Of a stretch of DNA of 64,000 nt, positions 7,059 through 48,482 are shown piece after piece; position 1 is the first letter of the stretch; every line of letters starts with the position of its first letter. This DNA is from Polytrichum commune. Its lineage: Eukaryota > Streptophyta > Polytrichopsida > Polytrichales > Polytrichaceae. The notes below the pieces were generated by a model, which had not been told where the DNA came from, searched no databases, and was given only the letters and a program-made list of their open reading frames with translations. Where the stretch lies: the NCBI GenBank assembly GCA_950295325.1, contig OX485806.1:40176001-40240000 (forward strand), read 5' to 3'. The translations under genes were made by a program, and so were the position numbers.

Positions 7059-10008
7059 CTAATTGATTACACTACATATTTTGCGGATTTCTCCGTTTGC
7101 TCCTTCCTTGACGCCAACATTGCCCAGCTTGATAAGCGCAGCCACAAAGTCGGAAGTGAAAGGCGATTGTGTGCCTGCCAAGAGGGCCGTTCTTTGCGAG
7201 GTGGCTGGGTTGGTGGCAAGATCCTGATCTAGCTTCAAAATGCCCCGCTTGGACACCAACTGTTGGTAGAAGATCTTGTCAACCTTCGTTGGGGTGCCTT
7301 GGTCAAGTGACACAGCCTTCCCGAGCCCACCTCCGTTCTGTGGGCATGTCTTTTTCAGCTTCGTCACCAAGGCAGGGTCCATGGCTGGGTCGGCTTTGCC
7401 GGTGCCCTGAAAGTTCCAAAGCCGGTCATTGAAGAAGCTACAATGCGTTACTCCAACGGTATGCGCTCCTGCAATTACCAAATTTTTAGCATTGAATTCG
7501 TGCGACAAAATCGTAAGTCAAACCACAAATTATCAGAATCAACACATGAATAACCCAAAAAACTGCTCAACACCTGCTCAACATTATTAATGATATTTAA
7601 GTATATTTGGACAAATCACTTGTCCAAAAACAATAAGCTATGTGCATTTATGAAGACAATAATATCAAAAGATGACAACTGAAGCAACAATACAACAACC
7701 ACAACTTTGAATGTCTATATTTCATGTTCACCAACCATCATGTTTGTGTACTTTTGTGATCTAGTGTACATCAAATTGGCCATTGGAATTGTCCAAAATT
7801 CATGTATATATCCAAATATACTTCAATTCTAGTTTTAACCACTTTGTGCACACCTCGCTAATCTTCTCTTCAAGATTTCCTTACAATTTGACATTCTATC
7901 ATCGTCATCTCATTCTCATGGCATGGAATTCATTCAAAATTTGTCAATCAATTGCATTCAAGATCACAAAGCATGGATTTTGATAGCAATTTTTGGATGC
8001 CTGAGTTATGAAGATGGTCGACTGTGTACCTAGAAGGGTGACCATGTCATTTTGGGAGAGGCCTTTCGCTGTGAAGGCAGATGTGGCCTGGGCTACACTC
8101 ATAGTGGGACCTGGAAGGTTCACTTGAGAAGCCTGAGAGATGCGCCCATCCCTGCGTCCTGTTGGCATATTGAAGCTTGGACCTCCAGACTGCCGTTAGC
8201 CACTCCACAAATTAAACATTATCAATTTCAAGTCAAAAAATTAACCTTAAAAAACAACTAAATACTTTGCATAGAGAATACTCCTACAAAATGTGCGATT
8301 CTTAAGCACAAATCCATTATTTGGAACTTATCCTATATGACTTTAATTAAAGTGGCATTTAAAAGACTCTAACCCAACAAACGTTGAATTGGCACTTCGA
8401 AGTAAAATAGGACTCGTTCCAATTAATAAAGATGCACTTAAGAACCCCACATTTTATAATAGCAGCATCTTCTTCGCAATCAGTGAAGTTCTAGTGAGTA
8501 TCTAAATGCTTCAACCTACAAGAATTCCTTATAAGCAACATTGAAACTACGTCCAGCAACTCAATTTTGACACGCTGAAGATAAGAAACTTCTCATGTCA
8601 GGTCACTCTAAATGAAATAATGATCAATGAAAATGAAGTATTTCCAAGACATATCACAGGGCCTTTAAGTTTATCACCTGTGTCCCAATATCTAGGAAAC
8701 TGGTCGATGAACCCACTTTCTCCACAAGTGATGGCATCTACACTTACTCTAGATTCTAGAGAGACGTGGTGCACTTCACGGCCTTGTGTACATAAGCATA
8801 CTATGCAATGAAGAGACTCAGAGAGACAGTGTTTAATATAGTACGAGTTTGATTGCATCTCTGGTGGCCAGAGCTATGATATCGGCGCAAGAAACTTTTC
8901 CAGGGCAAATCTTCTCCACAGCAGCCTTGGCAGTGTCAATCAGGTCATAGCCATGGATTGTCAAGTTGGACCCTGCATCCTTCTCCGCAGTGTTGCCACT
9001 CTTGCTGTTTATCAAAATGGATGCATCACAACCCTACATAAATATATTAGCACACAATACATCAGTGTGTTCCCATTTCCGTATATTAATTCATACACTT
9101 AGCACTTCCATATCATTGTGTAAACCTCAATGCATAAACACATCACTATCAGTGGCAGAGTGGACTTAGTCTGACGTTACACTAAGTTGAATCCAGGTTA
9201 TTCTTCCAAGTTGACCTTGAAGCGGAGAAGTGCTCACTTAATTAAGCTCACTCTTCCTGGTATGTGTTCACTTAAAAGTCTAACTAAAATCCGCAGTTCT
9301 AGGATTTCTTGACAAGTCTAAGCCACTTTCTATTTGTGAGCTACAGCTTGACAAGGAATGTGAAAAGAGTGACAGTCCTGCAGCATTCCAACTTCTGTAG
9401 CTGAAAACGGATTCACAAGGGCCTTGAATTTCATCACCTCTGTCTGAACACCTCTACCTTGAATTTCATCACCTCTACCTTTATCCTAGATACTGGACAG
9501 AGGTGATGAACATCAGGACCCCCTTGATTCAACTAAAAAAGGTTCCCTGCAAGGTTAGCTAACCTTAAATTGGGTTCAACCCACACAATATATATGGAAT
9601 GTCAGGTTGATGGCAAGTTTCTAAAGGAAAGCAATGTAACTTGAAGATGATGAATTGACATCCTCTTTCTAGACTAGTAGAATTAAGTTGTACAGTTCAC
9701 AGTTCACATGGTTACAATGGATTAAGGCTGAGAAAAATGCTACTGCCAGTACATCTATTTTCAGATAAGCCTGGCAACATATATATTACCTGAACAAAGC
9801 AGTCGTGGAAGAACATCCTCAGGAGTCCAGGAGTGATGGTCTTGTCTTTGTTGAACTTGGCTTGCACTGCACTTCTGATGGTACCCTCCACATCTTTGCC
9901 AGGGCAAACTGAGGTATAGAACCCAACTTTCAACCCCTCTGCACTCTGGGAAGCACTAAATATTAAGGTGACAAGTACTAGTAACACCATCACAACTCGA
10001 ATTCTCAT
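7059..10008 (-). CDS. Class III secretory peroxidase POX1, four exons
   Basis: Heme peroxidase (donor:H2O2 oxidoreductase) of the secretory plant family, expected in cell wall or vacuole, oxidising phenolics and contributing to lignification and reactive-oxygen control. Minus-strand exons are 10008-9790, 9033-8845, 8189-8030 and 7468-7059. All junctions are GT-AG, phases 0, 0, 1, total 978 bp, 325 residues. Residues 1-24 form a hydrophobic signal peptide. The distal site is RMFFHDCF (Arg64, His68). GCDAS follows, then the NLT sequon and the CPGKVSCAD pair. GRRDG and LPGP lie in exon 3, and the proximal heme ligand is His192 in [10 protein letters not shown]. All eight conserved cysteines are present. 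An upstream in-frame Met at 10041 would add 11 charged residues; I prefer 10008 because the signal peptide then starts at once. Introns 1 and 2 carry the POX-associated repeat and intron 3 a MITE. Probably functional. Confidence 0.93.
7600..7822. mobile_element. MITE, GTATATTTGG-ended family, copy 2, in POX1 intron 3
   Basis: 223 bp, ends AGTATATTTGG and inverted CCAAATATACT, flanked by TTA (left) and TCA (right). Strong similarity to 52-277 and, inverted, to 24757-24974. It lies wholly inside POX1 intron 3 (7469-8029) and leaves both splice sites intact. Confidence 0.75.
8655..8700. repeat. POX-associated short repeat, in POX1 intron 2
   Basis: Matches the recurring block TATCACCTGTGTCCCAATAT followed by CTAGGA, preceded by GGGCCTTTAAG. 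Other copies are at 9417-9520, 10318-10590, 31525-31825, 33105-33170, 37690-38300 and 63765-63850. Confidence 0.6.
9417..9520. repeat. POX-associated short repeat, inverted pair in POX1 intron 1
   Basis: Two TTTCATCACCTCT blocks followed by the inverted form CTAGATACTGGACAGAGGTG and ATGAAC. The opposing orientations could fold into a hairpin. Inside POX1 intron 1 (9034-9789). Confidence 0.6.
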
Positions 10009-32189: not shown

Positions 32190-35100
32190 ATGATGATGAC
32201 AGCTGAGATCCTGAGAAGAAGAAGAGTGAGGTTAATGGCACAGTTGTTGTTGCTTGCTGCAACATTAATGGGATCATGTCTTCAAAGTGCAAGTGGGTTG
32301 ACAGTGGGCTTCTACAACTCAGTCTGCCCAGGCAAAAATGTGGAGGGCACAATCAAGAGCGCAATGCAAACCAAATTCAATTCAGACAAGACCATCGTTC
32401 CTGGGCTATTGCGCATGTACTTCCATGACAGCTTCGTTCAGGTACTACTTAATTAGTACTCGTCAGGGATAATAGTCAATTTTTGCAGGGATAGATATAT
32501 ATATGGACATTATATATCTTGCAATTATGATTTGGTTTTACTGGAACTCATGTATGATGAGCCCCAAGTTGCAAAGTTAATTTATCTCATGGATCGGAGT
32601 GAAGTACTTCAGAATGAGTTTGAAATCCATGTTGGGTTGCTAAATGTGCCAGGGTTTAGATGCATCAATCCTGATAAAGTCCACGGGAACCAACACTGCA
32701 GAGAGAGACGCCGGGCCGAACCTAACACTCCATGGCTTTGACCTGATTGACACGGCCAAAACTGCAGTGGAAAAGATTTGCCCTGGCAAAGTCTCTTGCG
32801 CAGACATCTTAGCGTTGGCCACCAGGGATGCAGTGGTTCTGGTACGAAAAACAGAAGATTTTCTCCACACTTCTGGGCTTCTAGATTATTTTGTTCAAAA
32901 ATGTTATCCCCCATAAGTTGATGATCTGCACTAGAAACAAGTCTAGCTCCACATATAAATTAGTGGATGTCACAAGTGTACTAATTAAATGATGTCAGAT
33001 ATCTGTGCCACATTCATAAGTATCAATGCTTTGGTTTGGTGACACAGATAGCCTTGAGCGATTGAGGCATGGACTTGATTGAGAATATGGTGGGATTATT
33101 TTGCATCACACAAGGACCTCTGTCCAATATCATATAGGAAAGAGGAGGATGGTACCACTGTTGAAAGTGGCACATCTTCCACAATCCTAGATATTAAGAC
33201 AGATCCTATGTATAAACTTGAGCCCCCCCCCCCTTCCCCTCAAACTTGATTCTACACTACGAAATTAGAGCAGCTCAGTTTAAATGAATTTTTATCACGA
33301 GAATTGTACTCGTACAGAATTCTTTTTGTGCCAGAAATTAGTATTAAATTTTCTTTGTGTTTGTTGACATTGATAGCCTAGAGAGACGTCATATTGGACA
33401 GTACAAAGGGTAATATTCACTCAGCATTACCACTGACTGAGGTAGAACTCTGTTATCAAATTCAACTCCGCTACAGTAGATTTAGTTACCCAAATCTATC
33501 CCCTAGTGGCAAAGAACCGGTGGCAAAGGTGTCTTCCACTGGTAAGCAATCAAGCAAAGCGTCCATTTATAAATCATATACCATTCAGGCAAAGTGTTCG
33601 TTTCAGTGGGCTGCAATTGCATCACATTATACACGGCCCACGGGGTTATTTTTCCGAAATCTGTGGTTATTTGATAGCTAGTGATGGAGAATGCTCCAGC
33701 ATAACCAGATTCAAGATTGAATTGAGTGCACTCGAAGGATGATATAAGTATATATTATAAGTTAATCCAGTTTTTGTTTCGGCCTCACAGAGTCGTGGAC
33801 GATGGCTGAGTTACAAAGGATTGACAGTTAATCAGCTGCAATTAACAATTTGTGGGCTGCCTGCAGGGTGGGGGAACAAGCTACCAAGTTCCATGTGGGC
33901 GCAGAGATAGCCGCGTCTCCAAAGCCTCCAATGTGAATCTTCCAGGTCCCACTGAAAGTGTGGCCACTGCAACATCTCAGTTCACGGCCAAGGGGCTTAC
34001 CCAAAACGAAATGGTCACCCTCCTCGGTACACACATAACCCAGTCACCTTCCAAATTAAAGCACCCAGTACTTCATGCACGGAGAATTCTGACTTGGCTG
34101 TACGAAAACATATCTAACTACTACAGTCACAGTTAATGCGATAATGAGAACTAGTTCCTCGATTCAGTATGATGTTGATTTGGTTCCAAAAAATATTCTA
34201 TAGCGTCCAAGTGAAAAAGTAGGTCACATTTTGAATATTTCTCTCTGAATCTTCATGCTCATTACCTGTACAAACAAGCATGCATGCAGATACAGTAGAG
34301 AGTAAGGTCCAAGTTTCTAAATTCTGGTCACCATTTCTATGTGCTGAGATCACCTGTTCGTGGTTTAATTTGACAACCCTGTGCCAATATTGACCCTTGA
34401 AATGCTTGGTTCACATTGGCTTGAGTTTCATGAAACCATCATCCAACTGAGGTGGAGTGGATGTGAAGTGAGACTCTTCAATGTGAAGAGGGAAGTCAGT
34501 CAGAAAAATACAGACTCAGGGTTTCTTTACACTGGAGAGGTTGAGAGCTTGAAGGTGGCGAGGTTTAAGGAAAGAGTCTTTCCATTGGTGGGGAGCCTCT
34601 TGTTCATGCTCGTTCACTCAAATCATTTTTACATTTGAGCGGATCACCTTGAGAGCTTCAACGTTCTAGTTCCGGTCCGGTCTACAATACTTAGATAGTG
34701 CTGTCGTGGATTCCATGTGGAATGAGTATGACAAGGTCTATATCATTTTTGACCAGCTCTTGTTCAAAATCCTAAGCTACCTCATGGAAGACGTTTAATG
34801 TTGTAGAGTTTGAATATTGCTTGGAACAATGGGCTTTCAAGGATTCTTAGGGTTGTCATGTATTCTCCTTTGTTTAGACGTGCCATTCCCTGTTGATATC
34901 TCACTTTGAGGATGCCATTGTACACTTTGCTCAAGCTAATGAGAGGTTAAGGATTGGTCAAGCTCTTAAAAATAGGTTTTCTTGGGATGAAAGCTTGCTA
35001 GATTTAAGCATCAAATCAGGCCCTTGAAATTGCAAGCTCTTAACTCAGTTAAGATCTAGTGCAATCAAGGGGCCCTTATACATATCCTATAAATATAAAA

Positions 35101-35867
35101 TGTAGTGGTGTCAATGTAGAGAATCTACAAATATATTTATTCATAGTCAAATCATGCCGTAATTTTGACTGAGATTGGGGGGTTGAATTTCACCCTAATA
35201 TTGTTCAGCCCCGTACCCGAAAGACCCACATCTTATGAATATTAGGTCACAAACACTAGCATAATGGATCATCCTAGCAGTTTTAAAGGATATTTATGAT
35301 GATATGATAAGAGGCGACTTCACTATGTGTTGTTTGTATTTGTTTGCTTACATAATGATTCCACAAATTATGTCAAAGGGTAAATATTACACTTCTTCAA
35401 ACAACAGCATTTGTGGCTTGGCACATGATTTTAAACCATGGAGATTTTGACATGTAGGAGCACACACAGTGGGAGTCACTCATTGCAGCTTCTTTAGCGA
35501 CCGCCTATGGAACTTCCAAGGCACTGGCAAAGCTGATCCGGCTATGGATGCTAATTTGGTGACAAAGCTGAAGAAGACATGTCCACAAAATGGAAGTGGG
35601 CTTGGAGCCCCTGTAAATTTGGACCAAGGCACCCCTACCAAGATTGACAAGGGTTTCTATGGGCAACTGCTAGCAAAAAAAGGTATTCTACAACTGGATC
35701 AAGCCTTAGCCACTGATTCAGCCACCTCCCAAAGAACTACCCTCTTGGCTGGCCCAAAATCAACTTTCAACAAAGACTTTGTGGTTGCTTTGATCAAGTT
35801 GGGCAATTTGGGTGTGTTGGAAGGCACTAATGGGGAGATTCGCAAAATTTGCAGTGCCATAAATTAA
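32190..35867 (+). CDS. Class III secretory peroxidase POX2 lacking one conserved disulfide
   Basis: Paralogue of POX1, very similar in exons 2-4. Exons 32190-32441, 32653-32841, 33867-34026 and 35458-35867; GT-AG throughout, phases 0, 0, 1; 1011 bp, 336 residues. The N-terminus has a basic stretch (RRRRVR) and then a hydrophobic signal; Met16 (32235) is an alternative start. Heme-pocket residues are present: Arg75, distal His79, proximal His203 in [10 protein letters not shown], and the NLT sequon. The family motif FHDCFVQGCDAS is FHDSFVQGLDAS here: Cys81 is Ser (AGC) and Cys86 is Leu (TTA). These two cysteines normally pair beside the distal calcium site. The other six conserved cysteines remain, and VPCGRRDS adds one that POX1 lacks. 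The frame is otherwise intact. It is either a functionally divergent enzyme or an early step of decay. Confidence 0.92.
33105..33175. repeat. POX-associated repeat in POX2 intron 2
   Basis: Contains AGGACCTCTGTCCAATATCA, a GTACCACTGTTGAAAGTGG block and ATCCTAGATATTAAGACAG. It is the longer form of the repeat, as seen at the right window edge. A poly-C run follows at about 33226-33235. Confidence 0.55.
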
Positions 35868-37649: not shown

Positions 37650-38455
37650 CAAACAAAGAATCTACCACAAGTGTAGAGGATAAAACTAGTGAGAGTGGAA
37701 TATCTCCCAACATCTTAGATATTGGGATATATCATGTGCCGAACTCAGGGCCTTGTGAACATTGATAAAAGTCCAATATCACACCCAAGTGCACAACGAT
37801 TGGTCTTCCCTTTCTGATAGGATCATACAGCTCCTCTTTCTCCATATCCTACGTGATCCCTTGAACTTCAATTCAAGCATTCTATTGAAGCATTATGATT
37901 CAGGGGATGAACTACAGGGCCTTGTGAACACTGATAGCATTCCACTCAGAGACTCAACAACACTATTGATTCCAATCTAACGTCAACTCAAGCATTGCAT
38001 TTAATCAATGAGAATTTCACATTTGTATATTATTAAACTCAATTGAAGGGGATCTCTACCCTATGCAAGACCTCAAAATTCAAATCATCCTAAGCTGAGA
38101 CGGCTATTTTTCCCCAATTTTCAATCAAACAAAGCACTCTAGATCTCCTCTCATTTTTAAAACTTTAATGCAAGTAACCTAGGCCATACAAAATAATCTA
38201 TCACAAATGTAGGTGGTGCCACTGGTGAGAGTGGATTATCTACCATTGGCCTAGAGTACGTGATGAACTCTAAGGACTTGTGAACGTTGATGGCATTCCA
38301 ATCATAGACCCAACAACAATACTACTTCCAATCTAGCTTCAATTTAGACATTGTGAATTGTACATTGTACATTAAACTCAATTTGAAGGGGATCTCTACA
38401 CTATGCAAAGTCTACCTCAAATCATTTCAATGTCACGCTGAGACACCTCAGAATT
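37650..38455. repeat. Imperfect direct repeats with POX-associated blocks
   Basis: Two units, about 37860-38105 and 38240-38455, share GGGGATGAACTACAGGGCCT-like, GGCATTCCA and ACTCAATTGAAGGGGATCTC blocks in order. A third partial unit is at 37660-37790. They include the CACTGGTGAGAGTGG and CTAGATATTGGGA motifs of the POX-associated repeat and run up to the POX exon relic at 38531. Confidence 0.6.
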
Positions 38456-38530
38456 AACCCAATATTTAACTAGCCAAAGCATCTAATTCACTCTTTGAGA
38501 TTTCTTGGGGTAAATTGTTCATTCACATAC

Positions 38531-38645
38531 CTGCACAAAACAATCATGGAAATACATCCGCAAGATACCAAGAACAATGGTCTTGTCGGTCTTGTATTTA
38601 ACCTCCACCACCTCTGTTATCACTATCTCAGGTGTAGAGCCTTCC
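38531..38645 (-). pseudogene. Peroxidase exon 1 relic (POX3-like)
   Basis: The minus strand translates to EIVITEVVEVKYKTDKTIV followed by LGILRMYFHDCFVQ and then GT, matching the end of POX3 exon 1 (RMYFHDCFVQ) including the position of the splice donor at 38530. Upstream, the signal peptide and the first Cys region (SSC in POX3) are degraded, and no exon 2-4 is found in 37500-38500. It is closer to POX3 than to POX1 or POX2, although it lies between POX2 and POX3. A dead fragment. Confidence 0.82.
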
Positions 38646-39163
38646 CGGTTACAAAGGAAATTACAAGAACAACTCTGAACTTAAGTATGTAAATGAGTGT
38701 AGGAAGTTCTACTATTATGAGTATGTCGTCCGGATACTTGAGCTACAATTTATAATACTTAAGCTGCCTAATAGTACGTGTCATTTCAATTTCTAGCATG
38801 TCAATTGACATGTGTTTATTTTCTTCACAGGTCACAATACATGTCAACTTCTAAAATGTGTGTGTCAATTGACATGCATTTTCTTTTTTGGTACAAGTTT
38901 TTGTGTGTCCAAAGTGAAAAACTTGCAAAAACTTTGTCAAACATACACACTGGCTGTCGATCTTGCCCTCTCCGAGTGTTTCCCAATTGTAAATGCCATT
39001 CCATCTAACAAGAAAGCCCTAATTTAAAATTTTATTCATTACTACTACTAGTACCCCTCTCCCTCGCCAAAAAATATTTACTCAAAAGAATACAAAGACA
39101 AGCAATCCAAAAATGACAAAAGTAATTTCATTGTCAGATGGTTGAAATGCAGACTTGTCATTG

Positions 39164-45852: not shown

Positions 45853-48482
45853 TTGGAGACTTTGATCAGCAAGATGGGGGTGGGAAGACTGACAATTTCG
45901 TGCTGGATTTTGATGTTCCTGACACTGATGAACATAACCCTACCCGTGAGCACACAGAGCTTAAAAGTGGGTTTCTACGAAAGTTCATGCTCTGAAGCTG
46001 AGACGGTGATCAGAGAGGTGGTGGAAGCTAAGTACAAGGCCGACAAGACCATTGTTCCTGGTCTCTTGCGAATGTATTTCCATGACTGTTTTGTGCAGGT
46101 ATGTGAATGAACAATTTGGCCAGCAGATCTTGAAGAGTGATGCTTTGGCTGGTTAACTTATGAGATCTTGCCACTTAATCGATTGACCTTGATTCTTGCA
46201 AATTTGTTATCCTTGATTCTAGAATTGAAATTCAGAAGCATCCTTACATGGCCCGAAAGTGTAATGTTATGTGTGTCAGGGGTGTGATGCGTCGTTGTTG
46301 CTGAACAGCAGCTCCTCTACAGAGGAGGAGAAGGATTCATTGCCCAATCAAACAATCCATGGGGTTGACGTGATTGAACTTGCCAAGTCCAACTTGGAGA
46401 ATGCTTGTCCAGGTGTAGTTTCATGTGCTGATATTATAGCTCTGGCCACACGGGATGCAGTTAAACTGGTATGCATATTACACCCATTCAATCTAAAACG
46501 GTCACTTTTAAGTGTTGAGCATATTAGATTTTGTTTTGAATGATTTACACTAGCAATTAAATGACACAGGGTTCCAAGCATGTTGTTCCTCTTCATGCAA
46601 CAACAAACCATCAACATGTGCATTAGAAGCATTGGCAATGGTTTAGAAACAGTTGTCCTGGAGGAGAGAGTTGTGCATTTGTGCATTCGAATTTGCAATA
46701 AATGTTATTTACTGATTTCTAATTTTTGTTTTAATAACTGAACTGCCAGGCTGGGGGTATGGATTATGCGGTACCGTGTGGCCGTTCGGATGGATTTATA
46801 TCCTCTAAAGAGATGGCTGATGCGGGCCTTCCAGGTCCACAATCCAGTGTGGCGTCAGCTGCAGCCTTATTTTCAGCTAGAGGGCTTAATGAATCCGACA
46901 TGGTGATCCTTTTAGGTGAGATTAAGATTCTCATACCCACGCTACTGGCCAAGTCATCCAATATGGGAGATGAATTAAATGTGAAATCGGGTCATGTAAA
47001 AATGGGGACACTAGAGTTCTCCTTGAGATTTGGTTGGGAGTTGGTGGTTTTGCATACAAAACATTCCATGATTGGTAAGATTTTGGTGCATGGTTGGAGT
47101 TGGTGTGGAAGTTTGAACAAAGAATATTGCTTAATTGGGGGTTGATTGCATTTTAACATCTTGGTGAGTCAATTTGAGATTACTAAATATGGAAAGTTTT
47201 GTACGCAAACCAATCAATTTCTGATCAAAACCCCGGCTGAATTGAAGGATTACTGCTATTGGTTGTTTATTTTCATCATGTGAACCATGGGGAAGAACTG
47301 TCAATTGCAGGCAAATTTGAGTATACTCCAAAATAGGTAATAATAGCTGCAACACTAGCTAGTCTGTATCCTTGAGAATGGAAGGTGGTGGCTACGAATG
47401 GGGAGATCTGACCAGTAGCTATAGATGAGCCGGTTGATTGTGAGTATTAACCATTTCAAGTTCAAGACGATCAAGCAAATGTTTTAAAAGATTCTATATC
47501 AGTGTCCAGGGAGATTTATGAGCATAATTGGTCGAGATCCTATTGTTTCCAATATCAACCGGTTACATGTTGGCATCTTTTAATTATCTTTATTAAGTTG
47601 AGGAATACTCTGTAAATTCCTCTTAATCGGTCGGTAATTTTCCTGAAGTCTTGGTTTTGAGCACGTTATTTCACAATCTCAACTGGTTCATCTGTAACTA
47701 GCTGTCGGTTCTCTCCGTTCATTGTTCTATAGAAAATGCCTTAAATTAATAAAGAAAAACCAAGAGGTACCAACATATAACTGGTTTGACTTGGAAACAC
47801 TTGGATCTTGATTGCTTTTGTCAAGAATCTCCCTGGACACAAGGTGGGTAGCAAAGTAGGTAAAATAAGTCAATGGAACACCAGTTGGTTGTCTAAATCT
47901 TTCTGGTACTTGCTAAACATTTTCGGGATGGAAGAGGGGTACTGAACTTGCAAATGGACCAAGTGTTAATCTGAAGGATGAATCCAACAAACATTCGTAT
48001 ACACAGACATTCCTATTGATGCAATTGTTTCCTTTTGTATCGACGCAGGTGCACATACAGTAGGAGTGGCTCACTGTGTCTTCTTCAGGGATCGGTTATA
48101 TAATAATGGGGGAACAGGGGGAGGCCCTGACCCCAACATGAACAAGACCACCCTTGATAGACTGAGCAAAATATGTCCCAATGACAATGCGCCACTTGGA
48201 CCCCCAGCTAACATGGACGGAGAGACCCCCCAGACAATCGACAATGTGTACTACAAAGAGTTGCAACTTCATAGCGGCGTCTTGCAGATCGATCAAGCCC
48301 TAACCTCCGACATGGCTACCAGTGCTGTAGTGAATTCCTTGGCCCAAGACTCGAACCAATTTAATGACCAATTTGTGGCAGCCCTCATCAAGCTTGGCAA
48401 CATTCTTGGGACACAACCACCCCCGTTAGTTAGGAACGTTCGGAAGCTCTGCAGAAATCCTGATGGGAGCACCGTGGGTTGA
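45853..48482 (+). CDS. Class III secretory peroxidase POX3, four exons
   Basis: Same enzyme family and intron positions as POX1 and POX2 but clearly more diverged. Exons 45853-46098, 46280-46468, 46750-46915 and 48049-48482; GT-AG, phases 0, 0, 1; 1035 bp, 344 residues. Signal peptide at residues 1 to about 35 (Met8 at 45874 is an alternative start). Distal site RMYFHDCF (Arg73, His77), GCDAS, sequon NQT, CPGVVSCAD pair, VPCGRSDG, LPGP, and proximal His203 in GAHTVGVAHC. All eight conserved cysteines are present. Exon 3 is two codons longer than in the paralogues, and about nine residues follow the last Cys. Intron 3 (1133 bp) holds nested hAT-like MITEs. The 38.5-kb relic derives from this lineage. 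Confidence 0.93.
47396..47843. mobile_element. hAT-like MITE, copy 4, split by copy 5, in POX3 intron 3
   Basis: Outer copy in forward orientation, ends GAATGGGGAG and inverted CTCCCTGGACAC. Flanks GTGGCTAC (47388-47395) and GTGGGTAG (47844-47851), 6 of 8. Its body stops near 47498 and resumes near 47726, exactly around copy 5. More diverged than copies 2 and 3. Confidence 0.7.
47500..47725. mobile_element. hAT-like MITE, copy 5, nested and inverted
   Basis: Starts CAGTGTCCAGGGAG, ends inverted CAATGAACGGAGAG. Flanked by TTCTATAT (47492-47499) and TTCTATAG (47726-47733), 7 of 8. Inserted into the middle of copy 4 in the opposite orientation. Confidence 0.78.

What the first reader, a model, noticed from the sequence alone, without database searches (positions are those of the whole stretch)
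32415..32670. POX2 has lost both halves of a conserved peroxidase disulfide
The motif FHDCF...GCDAS is FHDSF...GLDAS (AGC for Cys at residue 81, TTA for Cys at residue 86). In class III peroxidases these two cysteines pair and brace the distal heme pocket and calcium site. Loss of both, not one, with Arg, both His, the other six cysteines and all splice sites kept, looks like paired loss followed by tolerance or selection rather than random decay. Neighbours POX1 and POX3 keep the pair.
Basis: partly seen in the sequence, partly recalled or inferred. Interest (0 to 1): 0.75.

Follow-up and report, generated by a model that had tools for sequence, protein, structure and literature searches.

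The report
Plant peroxidases repeatedly dropping one disulfide
A secreted plant peroxidase in this window lacks both cysteines of one of its four stabilising bridges yet looks like a working gene, and two other lineages of the same gene family in this genome independently lack exactly the same pair.

Summary
POX2 (321 codons, four exons, GT-AG introns, no internal stop) reads FHDSF/GLDAS where POX1, POX3 and a further neighbour (L001) read FHDCF/GCDAS. These are HRP Cys44 and Cys49; the codons lie on either side of intron 1, and at least three base changes were needed. I modelled peroxidase genes of the same genome: of 39 rows, 4 lack both cysteines (POX2, one C1 gene, a near-identical pair on C5/C7) and 1 lacks only Cys44. 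A tree without that loop needs three separate origins; forcing any of them together is rejected. The other three bridges' cysteines are kept, bar two displaced ones and three truncated models. All four double-losers keep the distal calcium ligands. POX2-branch dN/dS is about 0.10, significantly below 1. A fungal class II peroxidase natively has alanine at both sites and still binds distal calcium. Best reading: a dispensable bridge, lost pairwise because a lone thiol is costly, leaving working, calcium-braced enzymes. Expression and activity are untested, and other plants could not be searched. New variant of a known kind.

The parts
32235..32441 (+). POX2 exon 1 (hydrophobic N-terminus to FHDSFVQ); alternative in-frame ATGs upstream, from 32190
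32430..32432 (+). AGC = Ser at HRP position 44 (Cys in POX1, POX3, L001)
32442..32652 (+). intron 1 (211 bp, GT-AG) separating the two lost-cysteine codons
32653..32841 (+). POX2 exon 2 (GLDAS to VVL)
32656..32658 (+). TTA = Leu at HRP position 49 (Cys in POX1, POX3, L001)
33867..34026 (+). POX2 exon 3 (GGGTS to LL); contains the extra Cys142
35458..35867 (+). POX2 exon 4 with proximal His and stop codon
31860..31865 (+). TATAAA, 375 bp upstream of the POX2 ATG: possible core promoter, untested
   Evidence: offset -375
7062..9996 (-). POX1, sister of POX2; keeps Cys44 and Cys49; exons about 9996-9790, 9033-8845, 8189-8030, 7468-7062 (start codon not settled)
45907..48452 (+). POX3, more distant relative; keeps Cys44 and Cys49; exons about 45907-46098, 46280-46468, 46750-46915, 48049-48452 (ends not settled)

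Best explanation
POX2 encodes a secreted class III peroxidase that most likely folds, binds heme and works without the small Cys44-Cys49 bridge. That bridge closes the loop carrying the distal calcium ligands; in POX2 the ligands remain, so calcium alone should hold the loop, as in fungal class II peroxidases. The bridge is the dispensable one of four. Losing one half leaves a free thiol beside the distal pocket, which selects for loss of the other half, so losses end up paired. The bridgeless state arose three times in this genome: POX2 and L032/L036 are nested losses; for L018 loss is the likeliest reading but the tree is unrooted. Shown: the sequence, the recurrence, retention of the calcium ligands, purifying selection averaged over the branch. 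Inferred: secretion, folding, calcium binding, activity, and the order Cys44 first then Cys49.
For: Intact four-exon gene; Pfam peroxidase at 263 bits. Census of 39 rows: both Cys absent in POX2, L018, L032, L036; only Cys44 absent in L030; Cys49 never lost alone. Three separate origins; AU tests of joint clades p = 1.4e-4, 4e-31, 3e-22 and 2e-52 (groups were chosen after seeing a first tree). Fisher test of pairing p = 4.7e-4 over 38 rows (rows are related, so indicative only). D43, G48, D50, S52 kept in all four double-losers. POX2-branch omega 0.10, p = 4.1e-6 against 1; 0.094, p = 2.3e-10 with POX3 as outgroup. Neutral drift gives the joint outcome in at most 3.8e-4 of runs. Versatile peroxidase has Ala49/Ala61 beside the distal Ca ligands Asp48, Gly60, Asp62, Ser64; engineering both to Cys formed an extra bridge (PMC4619715, passages). 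Ascomycete class II enzymes are said to miss most of their stabilising cysteines (PMC6937255, passages).
Against: No transcript, protein or orthologue evidence. dN/dS averages the whole branch (dS about 0.65), so a late loss followed by relaxation is not excluded. The tree-based independent-pairs test has too few events (3 of 4 pairs agree, 1 does not differ; p = 0.25). L018 has extra cysteines and a displaced C-terminal one, so it may be bridged differently, and its deep position is unresolved. Split HRP is reported inactive in a reducing environment because bridge and calcium become unstable (PMC10828542, passage), though that passage does not single out Cys44-Cys49.
Confidence: 0.72

Rival explanations
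1. POX2 is a young pseudogene: it was constrained for most of its branch and has lately drifted, and the cysteine losses are early lesions.
For: No expression data; dN/dS averages over the branch; 700 bp upstream shows no convincing conservation with POX1 (best match 19 bp, E = 0.046); one family member, L012, has an internal stop, so decay does occur in this family.
Against: No stop, frameshift or splice lesion, and 19 of 19 checked key residues intact; at least three changes concentrated in two codons; joint neutral outcome in at most 3.8e-4 of runs; the same pair absent in other lineages that keep the catalytic and calcium-ligand residues.
Confidence: 0.13
2. Adaptive change: the bridge-free loop was selected because it makes the distal calcium or heme pocket more labile, changing kinetics, pH range or calcium response.
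For: Three separate paired absences of the same bridge, with the calcium ligands kept; work on versatile peroxidase links this region to distal-histidine position and stability (PMC4619715, passages).
Against: No elevated omega on the POX2 branch (0.10 against 0.16 elsewhere, p = 0.22; with POX3 as outgroup 0.094 against 0.21, p = 0.011, in the direction of stronger constraint). A branch average cannot see selection at two codons. No functional data.
Confidence: 0.12
3. Assembly or base-calling error at the two codons.
For: None found; POX2 is a single locus.
Against: Two codons 226 bp apart in the DNA differ from Cys by at least one and two bases; a separate pair of loci (L032, L036) agree with each other on Ala/Ala.
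Confidence: 0.01
4. For L018 only: it is a primitive lineage that never had the bridge, not a loss; the genome would then hold two losses and one retained ancestral state.
For: Its position is unresolved and the tree is rooted only at its midpoint; class I has no bridges (PMC6937255, passage) and versatile peroxidase lacks this one.
Against: Its intron 1 splits the loop at the same place as in the other genes checked, and introns 2 and 3 resemble theirs; not decisive.
Confidence: 0.02

Closest known systems
Class III (secretory plant) peroxidases, e.g. HRP C1A, royal palm peroxidase
   Same: PF00141 domain, catalytic Arg/His/His, calcium ligands, three of the four bridges, three introns (three introns as classical layout is recalled)
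   Different: Cys44-Cys49 bridge absent (Ser/Leu); four conserved bridges are described as general for the class (PMC6213016, PMC8481831, passages)
Fungal class II peroxidases (versatile peroxidase)
   Same: Distal calcium site without a bridge at this place; Ala49/Ala61 in versatile peroxidase (PMC4619715, passages), the same residues as Ala/Ala in L032/L036
   Different: Not the closest by sequence: the matches listed for POX2 (46) and L032 (51) are plant peroxidases first, then ascorbate peroxidases, plus two at E above 0.2 for L032; none bears a class II name
POX1 and L001 (neighbouring relatives)
   Same: 78% and 70% amino-acid identity to POX2 over the compared codons; three introns each
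   Different: Both keep FHDCF...GCDAS

Membership tests
Class III peroxidase | PF00141 peroxidase domain | tested here: met
   263 bits against a cut-off of 27
Class III peroxidase | Nests among class III sequences | tested here: met
   Sister of POX1, 97/82 support, in a 99/96 clade of six; the 25 best solved-structure matches carry plant peroxidase names (their class III status is recalled)
Class III peroxidase | Distal Arg and His, proximal His | tested here: met
   R60, H64, H188
Class III peroxidase | Side-chain ligands of two calcium ions | tested here: met
   D43, D50, S52 with G48, and T171, D222, T225, D230 equivalents present (ligand numbering recalled)
Class III peroxidase | Eight cysteines in four bridges | tested here: not met
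   Six of eight present; positions 44 and 49 are Ser and Leu. Placed in class III by descent only, as a variant outside the eight-cysteine hallmark
Class III peroxidase | Secretion signal | tested here: inconclusive
   Hydrophobic N-terminus seen; no signal-peptide predictor available
Class III peroxidase | Heme binding and peroxidase activity | not testable with these tools
   Needs protein
Class II peroxidase | Sequence relationship to fungal class II enzymes | tested here: not met
   No class II name among 46 matches at E up to 0.001 for POX2 or 51 at E up to 1 for L032

The most novel reading that the evidence does not exclude
Class III peroxidases of this plant lineage have repeatedly and adaptively converted a bridge-locked distal calcium loop into one held by calcium alone, converging on the fungal class II state and giving calcium- or desiccation-sensitive wall peroxidases.
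Probability: 0.12. Interest if true: 0.75.

Novelty: new variant of a known kind. Interest (0 to 1): 0.5.

Why it matters
Four bridges are described as general for class III peroxidases and listed among the features that tell them from class I in annotation (PMC8481831, passage). A genome where one bridge is missing in three separate lineages, each time as a pair and with the calcium ligands kept, shows which bridge is dispensable and gives natural with/without comparisons (POX2 against POX1, L032 against L044) to measure what it does. Filters that demand eight cysteines would discard such genes as decayed.

Tried and rejected
Promoter comparison of POX2 and POX1 (700 bp each) found nothing useful (best match 19 bp, E = 0.046). 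Compensation by a new cysteine in POX2 was rejected: Cys142 is shared with L001, which keeps the Cys44/Cys49 pair. Dating the loss within the POX2 branch was not possible. Synonymous sites are saturated for some pairs (dS 8.6 for POX2-L037, 4.2 for POX2-POX3, no finite value for L022j-L044), so the outgroup branches of the codon models are poorly determined.

The organism was not identified: 408 Mb in 64 contigs, seven of which are 42-78 Mb. A light-harvesting protein has, after one 620-residue chain (9vfj), entries 8htu and 7xqp as its best solved-structure matches, which I recall to be from the moss Physcomitrium; seven chromosomes would fit Polytrichaceae, also recalled. (paper searches on moss genomes) did not name it.

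Literature: seven paper searches bore on the missing cysteines; none of the listings and passages I saw reports class III peroxidases lacking this pair. Listings were capped (for example 15 of 180, 15 of 49, where those listed were chance word matches). I saw passages of eleven papers and read none in full; those of PMC12454661, PMC11503002, PMC4232752, PMC9137787 and PMC8309402 did not decide anything here.

Rows left out of the 39-row census: FRAG38k, L038, L046 (fragments), L021 (looks like class I), L003, L018, L022, L025, L027 (replaced by longer joined stretches), L007, L008, L047, L048 (same proteins, by eye, as L005, L006, L037 where the models overlap). One gene-sized group of hits (C2:23298792-23301515, same scores as L006) and three lone fragments (C1:13944270, C2:15841578, C4:14312688) were not fetched. 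Three kept rows lack the C-terminal part (L004, L012, L017).

Full report
Observation. POX2 spans 32235-35867 (+) in four exons with GT-AG introns and an uninterrupted 321-codon frame. Codon 66 is AGC and codon 71 is TTA, in exon 1 and exon 2, with the 211-bp intron 1 between them. Aligned to its relatives these are the equivalents of HRP Cys44 and Cys49, one of the four HRP bridges (Cys11-Cys91, Cys44-Cys49, Cys97-Cys301, Cys177-Cys209; PMC10828542 and PMC9233188, passages). The other six cysteines, the distal Arg/His, the proximal His and the calcium ligands are present. Cys142 is an additional cysteine shared with L001 and POX3 but not POX1.

Family in the genome. A Pfam peroxidase search of G000 gave 134 exon-level matches (150 of 191 candidates scored, so the list may be incomplete). 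I fetched 48 stretches and built spliced models with an aligner written for this purpose, using POX2 or POX1 as query; 39 rows entered the census, the dropped rows being listed under Tried and rejected. Cys44 is absent in 5 of 39 (POX2, L018, L030, L032, L036) and Cys49 in 4 of 39 (the same without L030). L032 and L036 are near-identical copies on C5 and C7 (98.6% amino-acid identity). Replacements are Ser/Leu (POX2), Ala/Phe (L018), Ala/Ala (L032, L036) and Ser/Cys (L030). Of the other six cysteines, C11, C97, C177 and C209 are present in 39 of 39; C91 in 38 of 39, L026 having its cysteine next to that place; C301 in 36 of 39 as scored, the other 3 being truncated models. One of those 36, L018, was scored on a spurious last exon; read to its own stop it has cysteines at 316 and 318, displaced from the usual place.

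Calcium ligands. D43, G48, D50 and S52 are all present in the four double-losers. Departures at these places occur elsewhere: D50 is Glu in L024 (both cysteines kept) and in L030 (Cys44 lost), and G48 is Arg in L025j (both kept). So bridge loss and ligand loss do not go together.

Independence. In the protein tree POX2 is sister to POX1 (97/82), L032/L036 sister to L044 (98/94), L030 sister to L031 (100/100), and L018 stands alone in an unresolved fork. With the loop columns removed, the double absence needs three changes; the well supported branches alone force three, the 5-95% range over 200 bootstrap trees is 3-3, and none of them has one. Holding POX2 with L018, POX2 with L032/L036, L018 with L032/L036, or all four together was rejected (AU p = 1.4e-4, 4.2e-31, 2.8e-22, 2.2e-52), with the reservation that the groups were named after the first tree was seen. 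The tree is unrooted: POX2 and L032/L036 are nested losses, but L018 could in principle retain an ancestral state.

Pairing. C49 is absent only where C44 is (Fisher p = 4.7e-4 on 38 rows). Rows are related, and the stricter tree-based test has only four informative pairs (3 agree, 0 oppose, 1 does not differ; p = 0.25), so pairing is suggested rather than proven. Because intron 1 separates the two codons in all four double-losers (211, 1398, 895 and 892 bp), one local mutation is an unlikely cause of a double loss.

Selection. In a four-gene codon model (POX1, POX2, L001, L037) the POX2 branch has omega 0.10 against 0.16 elsewhere; the difference is not significant (p = 0.22) but omega = 1 is rejected (p = 4.1e-6). 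The same test on the POX1 branch, as a control, gives 0.15 (p = 0.82 for the difference, 1.1e-5 against 1). With POX3 in place of L037 POX2 has 0.094 against 0.21 (p = 0.011 for the difference; p = 2.3e-10 against 1). For L032 omega is 0.15 against 0.07 elsewhere (p = 0.14; p = 0.019 against 1) and for L030 0.14 against 0.09 (p = 0.54; p = 0.020 against 1) (all; outgroup branches are long or saturated). These averages show long constraint but not that constraint outlasted the cysteine loss. A neutral-drift simulation found both cysteines lost, no stop and 19 key residues kept in at most 3.8e-4 of 100,000 runs at any of six divergences.

Mechanism. In versatile peroxidase, a class II enzyme, residues 49 and 61 are alanines beside the distal calcium ligands Asp48, Gly60, Asp62 and Ser64. 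Changing both to cysteine, in a variant with other mutations, made an extra bridge that further stabilised the enzyme at pH 3.5 but not at pH 7 beyond the parent variant, and did not raise T50; the same paper cites a manganese peroxidase in which an engineered bridge at this place raised thermostability (PMC4619715, passages). So a peroxidase distal calcium loop can work without this bridge. The four double-losers keep the ligands, and the most economical reading is a calcium-held loop, perhaps of lower stability. A likely path is Cys44 first (L030 shows that stage, and Cys49 is never lost alone), then loss of the stranded Cys49; this order is inference from four lineages. Against easy tolerance, split HRP is reported inactive in a reducing environment owing to instability of the bridge and calcium (PMC10828542, passage), without singling out this bridge.

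Known or new. General descriptions give class III peroxidases four conserved bridges (PMC6213016; PMC8481831; passages). None of the seven relevant paper searches showed a report of this paired loss in what I saw, but only open-access papers are held, most hits were seen as capped listings, and sequence figures are not held. Redoxibase curators may well have such sequences. No plant collection was available, so losses in other species could not be counted. I therefore call it a new variant of a known kind, of moderate interest.

Noticed in passing
window 38250-38800 (-): An isolated POX3-like exon 1 lies inside a dispersed repeat: 40 near-full-length matches including itself (the 39 others at 82-86% identity, on all seven large contigs), with only 40 of 363 candidates scored; the region of POX3's own exon 1 (about 45989-46156) is 83% identical to it. 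A mobile element may have captured a peroxidase exon.
   Followed up: partly
C2:23.12-23.37 Mb: Cluster of eight peroxidase genes in both orientations, several giving the same protein model.
   Followed up: no
C5:3.93 Mb (L032) and C7:21.0 Mb (L036): Near-identical peroxidase genes on two contigs, dS about 0.02: a recent duplication between contigs.
   Followed up: partly
C5:50.92-50.94 Mb (L011, L012): Inverted neighbour pair; L012 has an internal stop, and the pair's omega is 0.74: L012 is a likely young pseudogene.
   Followed up: no
L018, C1:3.66 Mb: This gene, which lacks both cysteines, carries extra ones (CPC, DPC...FAC, DCGC) that might form other bridges.
   Followed up: no
C5:1.75-1.85 Mb: Fourteen light-harvesting genes with the same domain score within about 95 kb.
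   Followed up: no
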